DNA of 64,000 nt from Cystobasidium ongulense. Lineage: Eukaryota > Basidiomycota > Cystobasidiomycetes > Cystobasidiales > Cystobasidiaceae. Made by a program: the position numbers and the translations under genes. Each line of letters opens with the position of its first letter. Positions within the stretch are counted from its first letter, which is position 1. The DNA is taken from positions 307,000-370,999 of the forward strand of contig BQUP01000012.1 in assembly GCA_022835595.1 (NCBI GenBank), in the 5' to 3' direction. This document shows, piece by piece, positions 9,218-23,218 of this stretch. A model generated the notes under the pieces. The model searched no databases. It had not been told where the DNA came from and saw only the letters and a program-made list of their open reading frames with translations.

Positions 9218-9949
9218 AGTACGTCTGAGATGGTTCAGTGAGCCGAGTGCAGAGCAGCCTCGGAACGATTATATGGTTATGAAACAACATTTGTATCATC
9301 TTGCCAGTAGATTGCGAATAGGTCTATAATGCAACACGTGATCCTGCCCGGGCAAGGCAATAGTGCGTATTTATCGGTTGCATGCTGAACTCAGATAAGA
9401 ATCATAAGATGTGTGTAACCCACTCGTGTTCTACAACATCGCTGGATGCTGTTGGCCAAACCAAACCGATGCTGCTTTATCAAGCTGTGGAGCGAAATGC
9501 CGGCATACTATACGCCATCGACATTTCATGATCACGCATGCAAAGTGTGAGCTCTTGAAGGTATATTGAGGCGGTAGACAGCTGCCAGCTATTGGAGTCA
9601 CAAATTTCACTAAACAATGCTCTTCGCGTATATTCTGAGGACTCATCTAAGTCAGGTAGCCGAATATAGACATTCTGTAATCTGGTTATCTTGCCTGCCA
9701 GAAACAGTTCAATTTTTAAGCCTTTTTTGGTAGGCGCCCGGGAAGCTTTGTTTAAGTTATAGGTTGGAGAGAGTAGGCAATATGGCTTACCCATTAATTA
9801 GTGACTCCTACATATAGAGTTCGTGACAGTAGAAGCCTTGTACTCGGTGCGCTTCGCCTGTTCGCAGATGCGAAGAGCACTTTGAGCTCGGCATAAGTGA
9901 TCAATATTATTGCCATTTGAAGAAAAAGAATTCATCCAAGAGAATTCAA
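9218..9949. other. Non-coding stretch upstream of tRNA-Tyr
   Basis: About 730 bp with no gene I can support. A 104-codon minus-strand frame near 9480-9794 has no recognisable features or intron support. Confidence 0.5.
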
Positions 9950-10161
9950 CTCGCGATAGCTCAGTAAGCACTCAATCCAGAGTCACACACTATCAGTTCG
10001 TTGGCTTATATCTTCTCCCTCAGGCTGGAAGAGCATGGTTAGTCAACATTCGTCGCAAACTTCGGTTCGGCGGCCTCTAACAAATCCTCAACAACAGAGA
10101 CTGTAATGGATACCTTATCTAGCCCATCTCAGGGTCCTCGGTTCAATCCCGAGTCGCGAGA
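9950..10161 (+). tRNA. tRNA-Tyr(GTA) interrupted by three introns
   Basis: A 73-nt tRNA is recovered when three segments are removed: 9964-10023 (60 nt), 10038-10097 (60 nt) and 10107-10125 (19 nt). The acceptor stem CTCGCGA/TCGCGAG has 7 of 7 pairs, the D stem is GCTC/GAGC with loop AGCTGGAA, the anticodon stem is TGAGA/TCTCA, the loop CTGTAAA holds anticodon GTA at 10103-10105, the variable region is GGGTC and the T arm is CTCGG-TTCAATC-CCGAG. C1-G72 and A73 are the eukaryotic tyrosine identity elements. The 19-nt intron sits after A37, as in all eukaryotic tRNA-Tyr, and contains TAC that can pair with the anticodon. The other two introns lie at 14/15 (inside the A box) and 28/29, begin GTAAG and GTTAG and end CTCAG and ACAG. 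The second has CTCTAAC 17 nt before its end. A T5 terminator follows. Confidence 0.9.
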
Positions 10162-10300
10162 GCGAGCAATCATCTTTTTGTCTTCATCGCCAAAACCAAC
10201 TTTCTTTTTATGTGGCGGGTCCTCGGTCCAATCCACAAGTCGCGAGAGCGAGCAATCATCTTTTTGTCTTCATCGCCAAAACCAACTTTCTTTTTATGTA
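10132..10300 (+). repeat. Direct duplication of tRNA-Tyr 3' end and its terminator
   Basis: The stretch from the variable loop of tRNA-Tyr through the 3' flank (about 84 nt from 10132) is repeated from 10217 with an offset of 85 to 86 nt. The flank, including the T5 run and an ACTTTCTTTTTATGT end, is identical. The T-arm part of the second copy has diverged: T stem and loop no longer pair fully, while TCGCGAG is kept. The second copy lacks D and anticodon arms, so it is a truncated tRNA relic. Confidence 0.88.
10175..10179 (+). terminator. Pol III T5 terminator of tRNA-Tyr
   Basis: Five T on the coding strand 14 nt after the discriminator base, the standard RNA polymerase III stop signal. 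Confidence 0.8.
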
Positions 10301-11441
10301 GAGCATCAAAGTGACCCTTCGGTCGTTCATTTCCTGAAGGCTGAAGTCCTTCCTCCTCCAAGACAGCTGTCATTAGTTTGGCTCGCTGCCACCTCCGTTG
10401 CTTAACTAGAGAACCTTTGAGCAATCATCAAGGCGTCTATCAGCCACATGAGGAACATGTCTCGAGGTCCTGTTGCTTTCTCTTCCTGTGAACTCTATAC
10501 ATGCGCAGCTCTGGCGGAGCAATCTGGATAGCCGTATTCGATGCAACTCATTCTGCTACACCGGGGTCCTGTGCTTTCTATCAACTGGGCAAGAAGTTTG
10601 AACACATCTTGTGGCACAATTGTTGTCGTGCGAAACTTCGCGAGGAATATACTTGAGTATGTAGGTGGTCCAAGCTCCCTCAAGGCAGCCACGCACGTGA
10701 CCGATGATATTATTAACGAGGCCAGGGCCCATTGGTGAGTCACAGGCTCAACAGGAACAGTGTTCCGGATGCCTCTCCACACAAGTTGTAAGTGGCAGCT
10801 CAAACGTAAATGATATGCGCGCCGTAATCGGTCCGCCAGCGTCTCTTTCAGCAGACCAACTTCAGGAACATGTGGGCGAAAGCGATTTGCGATCCATTGG
10901 CAAACGAAGTGCTATACTTACGTCATCAGCTCACAGAATAGCCTCCCAAGACTAGTGAATATCAAGGGAGACACACGGAAAAGTTTTATTACGAGTAGAG
11001 GAGTACAGTCTCCCTTCGTGAGGTGTCTGTGCAGTCAGAACTTCTCGATCAAGTCAGCGTCTTAGCCAGAGCCGGCATTGGCACGTTGTGCCTCTTAGAA
11101 GAACAATGACTGCGCACATGCACACAGTGCCTGCCACTGAGAGGCAGACGACCGCTTCAATGACATCTGTTTCCAGTCACAAGGAGAGTTGTTGATCCCG
11201 ACTCGCTCAGCTGCACGAAGGGGTTCAAGCTCGACCGCTCTTAGCTCGACGATCCAGTACACATGGCAGCAAGAGCAACGGAGTGAACTTCGGAGTGGTT
11301 TGCTCAAACGCATACACTGGCATACCTCACAACGTACAGCTCACCAACGCCAACGCAGAAGAGAAGGTGAGATGTAGTCGTGCGGCTCTCGATCATCCTA
11401 AAGCTGAGTCGAGCACACCACGGTCCAGCATCTTGTGCAGT
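10301..11441. other. Non-coding stretch and probable promoter
   Basis: About 1.1 kb without a supportable gene. It should contain the promoter and 5' UTR of the hydrolase starting at 11442; an open frame continues upstream of that ATG without another ATG. Confidence 0.45.
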
Positions 11442-22580: not shown

Positions 22581-23124
22581 GGTGGATGTTGGACGACGAG
22601 GTAAAGGTTGAATCGGGGTCGGGGAAGGTGCCTGGCGTATAACTCGCAGGGAAGGTAGATGCCCTTCTTTTTCTGTTGTCTGTGCTCGCTGCTGTTGAAC
22701 TCGCTGGAGATATAAATTTGTATAGCGTGCGCGGAATGCAAGCAAGAGGAGAGAAGAGTGTCTAGCTTGAAGCAGGTTCACGGTATAGGTACGAAGGTGA
22801 TGAGCGAGCAATTGGTAAGGTATAGTAGTAGTAATAAGTAATGACGAGGGAAACGATTAGCAACTCCGGCTGTTCTGTTGCTGATTATTCATGATTTGAT
22901 GCTCGCATCGAAAAGTATTTGATCGCCACAGTCAGGATTCCGCCTTTCCCCGCGGCCTTGCTGGGGAGGAGTGCGTCTTCGCTCGAAGGCGCCATCGTGC
23001 GCGTCGGTCGGGCCGATCATGAGCGGACAAGACGGAAGATTGAAAGGTCCGGGCGATTTTTCAAATGCCACATCAAGTTCAGCTATTGGTATATCTGGCA
23101 ACTTATCCCATTTCCTAGTCTGGC

Positions 23125-23196
23125 AGTTCTTTAGCTCAGTGGCAGAGCATAGGCTTACACGCCTAAGGGTCGTGTGATCAAAACGCACAAGAACTG
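23125..23196 (+). tRNA. tRNA-like gene, valine-like, with odd anticodon loop
   Basis: A 72-nt cloverleaf folds: acceptor AGTTCTT/AAGAACT (7 of 7), D stem GCTC/GAGC with loop AGTGGCA, anticodon stem TAGGC/GCCTA, variable AGGGTC, T stem GTGTG/CGCAC with loop ATCAAAA. The anticodon loop is TTACAC, six nt instead of seven. It equals a valine loop with one base missing; read as U33-TAC-A-C it would be Val(UAC). Position 54 is A, not the nearly universal T. T5 runs follow at 23219 and 23225. It may be a functional variant or a decaying gene. It lies about 120 bp upstream of the GHITM-like ATG. Confidence 0.6.
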
Positions 23197-23218
23197 GATT
23201 ATTGTGGGCGCGAGTCGC

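What the first reader, a model, noticed from the sequence alone, without database searches (positions are those of the whole stretch)
9950..10161. tRNA-Tyr gene split by two mRNA-type introns plus the canonical tRNA intron
Seen: removing 60 + 60 + 19 nt leaves a 73-nt tRNA-Tyr with every stem fully paired, the G15-C48 and T8-A14 tertiary contacts, C1-G72 and A73. The 19-nt intron is in the normal place. The two 60-nt introns are not: they interrupt positions 14/15 and 28/29, begin GTAAG/GTTAG and end CTCAG/ACAG, and the second has CTCTAAC at a branch-point distance. They look exactly like the protein-gene introns in this window (57 to 83 nt). Known: mRNA-type introns occur in the U6 snRNA gene of fission yeast and some basidiomycete yeasts, so spliceosomal insertion into a Pol III transcript has precedent. 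Inference: the spliceosome, or a relaxed tRNA endonuclease, must mature this tRNA, and intron 1 splits the A-box promoter. CTCAG occurs at both ends of intron 1, a possible trace of insertion.
Basis: partly seen in the sequence, partly recalled or inferred. Interest (0 to 1): 0.93.

Follow-up and report, generated by a model that had tools for sequence, protein, structure and literature searches.

The report
tRNA-Tyr gene with mRNA-type introns
A fungal transfer-RNA gene appears to be cut into pieces by two introns of the kind normally found in protein genes, so the cell may need its messenger-RNA splicing machine as well as its tRNA splicing enzyme to make this tRNA.

Summary
At 9950-10161 (+), removing 9964-10023 (60 nt), 10038-10097 (60 nt) and 10107-10125 (19 nt) leaves a 73-nt tRNA-Tyr(GTA) with all 21 stem pairs. 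Of 115 ways to cut a full cloverleaf from this locus, exactly one has GT-AG borders on both long segments: this one. Chance is excluded: 0 of 1500 shuffles reach 21 pairs. Both segments lie in the top 1% of 28,577 window GT..AG segments for splice-site score. Neither shows a bulge-helix-bulge. B box and T5 terminator are intact; the split A box still reads 7 of 8 conserved bases into intron 1. New here: the two introns resemble each other (27 of 20,000 control pairs as similar). The supposed CTCAG target-site duplication is out of register. Ten literature searches listed no precedent in a tRNA gene. Against: if intron 2 is kept, ARAGORN's intron mode makes poorer calls of other tRNAs; intron 1 has only a weak branch site; there are no RNA data and no whole genome, so function, and whether this is the only tRNA-Tyr copy, remain open. 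Best reading: removal by the spliceosome (0.6); main rival: interrupted pseudogene (0.22).

The parts
9950..9963 (+). tRNA-Tyr exon 1: acceptor 5' strand, T8-A9, D-stem 5' strand, A14
9964..10023 (+). intron 1 (60 nt), GTAAGC...CTCAG, between positions 14 and 15; pyrimidine-rich 3' end
   Evidence: splice-site score in top 0.95% of 28,577 GT..AG segments; no bulge-helix-bulge
10005..10009 (+). weak branch-point candidate CTTAT in intron 1 (fits CTNAY, not CTRAY)
10024..10037 (+). tRNA-Tyr exon 2 (14 nt): D-loop from G15, D-stem 3' strand, A26, T27, G28
10038..10097 (+). intron 2 (60 nt), GTTAGT...AACAG, between positions 28 and 29
   Evidence: splice-site score in top 0.97%; no bulge-helix-bulge; resembles intron 1
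10077..10081 (+). branch-point candidate CTAAC in intron 2 (within CTCTAAC)
10098..10106 (+). tRNA-Tyr exon 3, 5' part: A29-A31, anticodon loop with GTA, A37
10107..10125 (+). canonical 19-nt tRNA intron at 37/38
   Evidence: ARAGORN shifts it by one base
10126..10161 (+). tRNA-Tyr 3' exon: A38, anticodon stem 3' strand, variable loop, T-arm, acceptor 3' strand, A73
9957..9968 (+). A box as it reads in the DNA, running into intron 1 (TAGCTCAGTAAG, 7 of 8 conserved bases; 8 of 8 after splicing)
10140..10150 (+). B box GGTTCAATCCC
   Evidence: one of two matches on the + strand of the window
10175..10179 (+). T5 run, candidate Pol III terminator, beginning 14 nt past the tRNA end; no run of 4 T inside the gene
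10217..10299 (+). tandem copy of the tRNA 3' end and its flank (96.4% over 83 columns to 10132-10213); its T-arm is degenerate

Best explanation
A nuclear tRNA-Tyr gene of a fungus that has gained two spliceosomal introns, in its D-loop and anticodon stem, besides its endonuclease-type intron. Proposed working: Pol III transcribes the 212-nt gene from the nearly intact A box, the intact B box and the T5 terminator; the spliceosome removes the two 60-nt GT-AG introns; only then can the cloverleaf form; the tRNA endonuclease and ligase then remove the 19-nt intron. Shown: the exon structure, its full fit to tRNA-Tyr, the mRNA-type borders and the absence of a bulge-helix-bulge. Inferred: transcription, removal by the spliceosome, order of steps, function of the product.
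For: Spliced product is a flawless tRNA-Tyr(GTA). Chance is excluded by 0 of 1500 and 0 of 400 shuffles. Only 1 of 115 cloverleaf-yielding cuts has GT-AG on both segments, the proposed one. The spliced order and spacing, TAGCTCAGYTGGNAGAGC-4 nt-GACTGTA, which spans both junctions, occurs uninterrupted in 6 viral-collection stretches and, with C at Y, in 19 prokaryote-collection stretches. Of these 25, ARAGORN called 6 Tyr, 16 Asn, 1 undetermined and 2 nothing; I read the Asn calls as Tyr with the intron misplaced. Outside the searched pattern, C1, G72, A73, the GTC of the variable loop and T-loop bases also agree among the five aligned (window and 4 of the 25). Splice-site scores of the two introns (11.71, 11.68) lie inside the range of 18 introns predicted from codon usage (4.5-14.6) and in the top 1% of GT..AG segments; with a branch site added, 88 of 28,577 segments do as well as intron 1 and 50 of 28,577 as intron 2. 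No bulge-helix-bulge at intron 1 in 6 registers or intron 2 in 2. B box, T5 terminator, no internal T4, A box 7 of 8 read through.
Against: No RNA data. No whole genome is held, so ordinary tRNA-Tyr copies cannot be excluded. Intron 1 has only a weak branch candidate (CTNAY, found in 18.5% of segments). Exon 2 is only 14 nt. In both introns the first 5 bases can pair with the branch region, which might hide the splice signals; 6 of 18 predicted mRNA introns can do this too. My intron training set is small and unverified. With intron 2 kept, ARAGORN's intron modes still call other tRNAs. By minimum energy neither the full transcript nor the form with only the 19-nt intron left folds into the cloverleaf.
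Confidence: 0.6

Rival explanations
1. Interrupted pseudogene: two insertions broke one of several tRNA-Tyr copies; the product is never made.
For: No expression data; the genome cannot be checked for other copies; the A box is split; a degenerate partial copy lies just downstream, so this locus has been rearranged. The review PMC4090602 (passages seen) says that D- and T-arm insertions in eukaryotic tRNA genes are mostly found in one of many synonymous genes and are supposed to be pseudogenes.
Against: All 21 pairs and the listed invariant bases are intact; both insertions have mRNA-intron borders and branch candidates, which random insertions would rarely have; if the two introns share an origin they have diverged far (40 identities over 66 alignment columns, 24 of 60 ungapped), while the exons show no decay.
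Confidence: 0.22
2. Ectopic tRNA introns cut by the tRNA splicing endonuclease, as reported for red-algal and nucleomorph tRNAs.
For: Non-canonical tRNA introns are known in archaea and nucleomorphs (PMC4090602 passages) and in Cyanidioschyzon (PMC9602550, search listing and start of abstract).
Against: No tested register at either intron pairs the 4-bp central helix; GT-AG borders and branch sites are not features of endonuclease introns (established knowledge). The canonical intron itself also failed my strict motif, so the test is not decisive for a eukaryotic enzyme, which may measure the tRNA body; but that body cannot form before introns 1 and 2 leave (inference).
Confidence: 0.09
3. The tRNA is made from a Pol II transcript that is spliced like an mRNA and then trimmed by RNase P and RNase Z.
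For: Spliceosomes normally act on Pol II transcripts; the gene lies in a gap of about 2.2 kb between predicted genes.
Against: B box and T5 terminator are intact and no T4 lies inside the gene, as a Pol III gene would need.
Confidence: 0.06
4. Only intron 1 is mRNA-type and the rest is one long anticodon-loop intron: a tRNA-Leu(CAA) with a 71-nt intron, or the Met or Asp that ARAGORN offers.
For: ARAGORN's intron modes make these calls when intron 1 is removed and intron 2 is kept.
Against: The Leu has a long variable region drawn without pairs, a C at position 37 and a G.T pair in the anticodon stem; the Met has a broken pair. The Tyr reading pairs everything, and its spliced string is that of other tRNA-Tyr-like genes.
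Confidence: 0.02

Closest known systems
Canonical eukaryotic tRNA-Tyr intron (position 37/38, tRNA endonuclease)
   Same: The 19-nt intron sits there; the tRNA body is tRNA-Tyr(GTA)
   Different: Two further 60-nt introns at 14/15 and 28/29 with GT-AG borders. The tRNAscan-SE 2.0 paper (PMC8450103, passages) states that eukaryotic tRNA genes are limited to one intron
mRNA-type intron in the U6 snRNA gene of fission yeast and some basidiomycete yeasts (recalled; no paper on it read here)
   Same: Spliceosomal intron inside a Pol III non-coding gene
   Different: Here the host is a tRNA gene, with two such introns, one of them inside the A-box promoter
Spliceosomal introns in fungal nuclear rDNA (Rogers et al. 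1993 seen only as a reference, and rDNA spliceosomal introns named in the methods passage, of PMC11782384)
   Same: mRNA-type introns in a stable structural RNA of fungi
   Different: rRNA, not a tRNA
Multi-intron and permuted tRNA genes of Cyanidioschyzon, nucleomorphs and archaea
   Same: Introns at non-canonical tRNA positions, several in some genes
   Different: Archaeal ones are described as bulge-helix-bulge introns cut by the tRNA endonuclease (PMC8450103 passages); no such motif was found here

Membership tests
tRNA-Tyr gene | cloverleaf with GTA anticodon, all stems, C1-G72, A73 | tested here: met
tRNA-Tyr gene | transcribed and charged with tyrosine | not testable with these tools
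   no RNA data
Spliceosomal intron | GT...AG with host-like 5' and 3' splice sites and host-like length | tested here: met
   scores 11.71 and 11.68 within 4.5-14.6 of 18 predicted introns; 60 nt against 50-89 nt
Spliceosomal intron | branch-point consensus at a suitable distance | tested here: inconclusive
   intron 2 CTAAC, met; intron 1 only CTTAT
Spliceosomal intron | removed as a lariat by the spliceosome | not testable with these tools
   needs RNA
Bulge-helix-bulge tRNA intron (introns 1 and 2) | two 3-nt bulges separated by a 4-bp helix at the borders | tested here: not met
   no tested register pairs all four central positions; best is 3 of 4 with no outer helix
Canonical tRNA intron (10107-10125) | located one base 3' of the anticodon | tested here: met
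Canonical tRNA intron (10107-10125) | strict bulge-helix-bulge | tested here: not met
   the strict archaeal motif is not required of eukaryotic introns (recalled)
Introner element | near-identical copies in the genome | tested here: inconclusive
   no copies of either intron elsewhere in the 64 kb; genome not available
Introner element | target-site duplication | tested here: not met
   direct reading: in the exon register at most one base repeats at each insertion
Group I or II intron | long catalytic RNA core | tested here: not met
   60 nt each; no such Rfam match at gathering score in the window, nor with E up to 10 at 9900-10330

The most novel reading that the evidence does not exclude
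A tRNA gene for tyrosine whose maturation needs two splicing machines in succession: the spliceosome for two mRNA-type introns, then the tRNA endonuclease. The two spliceosomal introns are diverged copies of one another, so an intron spread within a single tRNA gene (for instance by reverse splicing into the tRNA), and intron 1 entered at the A box without destroying it because GTAAG mimics the box.
Probability: 0.3. Interest if true: 0.95.

Novelty: new variant of a known kind. Interest (0 to 1): 0.86.

Why it matters
tRNA and mRNA splicing are treated as separate pathways. A tRNA gene carrying both intron types would link them, show that spliceosomal introns can colonise even a Pol III gene with an internal promoter, and make supply of this tRNA depend on the spliceosome. 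It would also mean that tRNA gene finders that expect one intron at 37/38 can miss such genes: ARAGORN and Rfam both missed this one (and the unspliced construct).

Tried and rejected
CTCAG target-site duplication: rejected, out of register by one G; intron 2 shows one repeated base only. Chance cloverleaf: rejected. Bulge-helix-bulge: not found. Introns derived from tRNA sequence: intron 1 against the mature tRNA is matched by 141 of 2551 control segments, intron 2 by 1921 of 2551; against the reverse complement by 2431 and 2551; against the 3' flank by 714 for intron 1 and 20 for intron 2. The last is the best of six comparisons, with many gaps, and is not relied on. Shared 5'-end/branch pairing in both introns: 361 of 2000 and 136 of 2000 shuffles have it, so not special. 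Relatives of either intron among the 27 predicted introns: best scores 21 and 25 against shuffle medians of 23 and 22, so none. Other interrupted tRNAs in the window: none with relaxed criteria. Removing single GT-AG segments (no-intron mode) gave 9 hits among 10,611 constructs on the + strand and 0 among 10,453 on the - strand; all 9 are the tRNA-like gene at 23124. Other second introns at this locus: with intron 1 out, two other GT-AG choices (from 10065) gave an undetermined tRNA, and one of them a Glu with an 8-nt intron at a non-canonical place; set aside because they do not pair fully at the canonical place. Alternative Leu, Met and Asp readings: listed as a rival. Relatives of the fungus: two exact tRNA patterns gave 0 in the viral collection; an ESCRT-III-like protein gave no relative; an AAA protein gave three distant matches of no use. 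PDB searches: one without match, one with CHMP1 and CHMP2 chains. Rfam at E up to 10 gave eight sub-threshold snoRNA matches at the locus, all on the - strand.

Full report
OBSERVATION. The window carries at 9950-10161 (+) the pieces of a tRNA-Tyr. Removing 9964-10023, 10038-10097 and 10107-10125 leaves 73 nt that ARAGORN draws as tRNA-Tyr(gta) with every stem fully paired. Standard scans miss the gene: ARAGORN and Rfam report only another tRNA-like gene at 23124.

WHAT ARAGORN SEES. All eight keep/remove combinations were run in four settings. With all three introns out: Tyr(gta) in all four. With only the 19-nt intron kept: Tyr(gta) with a 19-nt intron in the three intron modes, but Leu(taa) in no-intron mode. 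With intron 1 kept (four constructs): nothing in any setting. With intron 1 out and intron 2 kept: nothing in no-intron mode, but Asp(gtc), Met(cat) or Leu(caa) with introns of 53-71 nt in the intron modes. I drew those alternatives: each has a long unpaired variable region and a weaker anticodon arm than the Tyr reading. So intron 1 is needed for any call, and intron 2 for the Tyr call; the software alone does not prove intron 2.

CHANCE. A pattern scan of both strands allowing 0-2 deletions of 45-100 nt with GT..AG borders and an optional canonical intron gave one hit in the window, this one, at strict and at relaxed criteria. In dinucleotide shuffles: 0 of 40 at strict criteria; at relaxed criteria 90 of 1500 had some hit, the best with 20 of 21 pairs, none with a GTA anticodon. 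An independent test cut 12,986 pairs of GT-AG segments (donor with G at position 5, no G before the AG) from the window and ran ARAGORN. In canonical-intron mode it gave one named call, this tRNA-Tyr; 0 of 400 shuffles gave any. In no-intron mode the window gave one named call (Leu, same construct) and 16 undetermined ones (2 here, 14 at 23124), while 12 of 400 shuffles gave named calls, one with Tyr. With free borders, 60 distinct full cloverleaves can be cut from this locus in 115 ways, 30 of the 60 with GTA; exactly one of the 115 ways has GT-AG on both long segments, and it is the proposed one.

IS THE SPLICED PRODUCT REALLY tRNA-Tyr? The string spanning both junctions, TAGCTCAGYTGGNAGAGC-4 nt-GACTGTA, occurs uninterrupted in 6 stretches of the viral collection and, with C at Y, in 19 stretches of the prokaryote collection. 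The Asn calls hold GACTGTA and an intron that ARAGORN sets inside the anticodon; I read them as Tyr. Five aligned sequences (the window and four of the 25) share C1, G72, A73, the variable-loop GTC and T-loop bases outside the searched pattern. Two contigs filed as Desulfosporosinus carry a tRNA-Tyr with a 12-nt canonical intron; that nothing interrupts it at 14/15 or 28/29 was required by the search pattern and is no separate evidence.

THE TWO 60-NT INTRONS. A codon-usage gene finder that knew only GT..AG predicted 27 introns in the window; 18 with gene score of at least 16 and 48-90 nt were used for splice-site matrices. The tRNA introns score 11.71 and 11.68 against 4.5-14.6 for those 18. 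Of all 28,577 GT..AG segments of 45-100 nt, 271 (0.95%) and 278 (0.97%) score as high; adding a branch site (CTNAY for intron 1, CTRAY for intron 2) leaves 88 and 50. Intron 1 lacks a CTRAY branch site; so do 7 of the 18 predicted introns. The predicted introns are not verified by RNA or protein alignment.

NOT THE USUAL tRNA INTRON. The bulge-helix-bulge was tested in 6 registers for intron 1 and 2 for intron 2; none pairs the 4-bp central helix; the best, 3 of 4, has no outer helix. The canonical intron failed the strict archaeal-type motif too, so this test alone cannot exclude the eukaryotic enzyme. By minimum energy the whole precursor forms the acceptor and T stems but not the D and anticodon arms, and the form with only the 19-nt intron left does not fold into a cloverleaf either. 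With all three introns out, the cloverleaf scores -25.6 kcal/mol against -25.8 for the best fold.

TRANSCRIPTION SIGNALS. The A box is interrupted after A14, yet intron 1 begins GTAAG, so the DNA still reads TAGCTCAGTAAG, 7 of 8 conserved positions; 90 of about 64,000 + strand positions, this one included, do as well or better. B box GGTTCAATCCC is intact, a T5 run begins 14 nt past the tRNA end, and no run of four T lies inside the gene. These fit Pol III; promoter use is inferred.

ORIGIN. The two introns resemble each other. The global alignment score of 22 (40 identities in 66 columns; 24 of 60 ungapped) is reached by 2 of 2000 interior shuffles; the local score by 23 of 2000. It is reached by 27 of 20,000 draws of random pairs of 58-62-nt GT..AG segments (close pairs were drawn but not counted as hits); across four scoring schemes the global counts were 19-42 and the local counts 36-128 of 20,000. 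Among 190 pairs of predicted introns 1 scores at least as high globally, and 9 locally. This was noticed after the fact, so I hold it as moderate support for a common origin. No copies of either intron lie elsewhere in the window. CTCAG at both ends of intron 1 is not a target-site duplication: the uninterrupted TAGCTCAGCTGG would have to give CTCA...CTCA|GCTGG or CTCAG...CTCAG|CTGG; the DNA has CTCAG|GCTGG.

ORGANISM. Fungal by a CBM_1 (fungal cellulose-binding) domain, Erv26 and Med13. Basidiomycete is a guess from gene style, not tested. No whole genome is held.

LITERATURE. Ten searches of the open PMC library listed no report, by title or start of abstract, of spliceosomal introns in a nuclear tRNA gene; I read passages of five papers only, and subscription papers are not covered. 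tRNAscan-SE 2.0 (PMC8450103, passages) says eukaryotic tRNA genes are limited to one intron. [quoted passage not shown] PMC13149111 (passages) treats tRNA splicing as spliceosome-independent. PMC11782384 (passages) names spliceosomal introns in fungal rDNA. PMC1796607 (passages) had nothing to the point. The U6 precedent is recalled.

VERDICT. The structure is real beyond reasonable doubt; removal by the spliceosome and function are the best reading (0.6), with an interrupted pseudogene as the main rival (0.22). What decides is RNA from the source organism and its other tRNA-Tyr copies.

Noticed in passing
window 23123-23197 (+): tRNA-like gene (Rfam 47.1 bits; ARAGORN undetermined) with, by my reading, a 6-base anticodon loop TTACAC and an A at T-loop position 54; possibly a degenerate or mitochondria-derived tRNA-Val.
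   Followed up: partly
window 10132-10213 and 10217-10299 (+): Tandem duplication of the tRNA 3' end with its terminator: 62 nt of flank are identical, while the differences lie in the T-arm part of the second copy.
   Followed up: partly
L012 7532-7616 and L027 6673-6757: Contigs filed as a Desulfosporosinus MAG carry a eukaryote-type tRNA-Tyr with a 12-nt canonical intron; L012 also holds an ORF that reads like an eRF3/HBS1-type GTPase (my reading, no search): likely eukaryotic contamination.
   Followed up: no
L006, L007, L009 and 13 of the 19 loci L010-L028: ARAGORN in intron mode names these 16 of 25 tRNA-Tyr-like genes Asn(gtt) because it sets the intron inside the anticodon.
   Followed up: no
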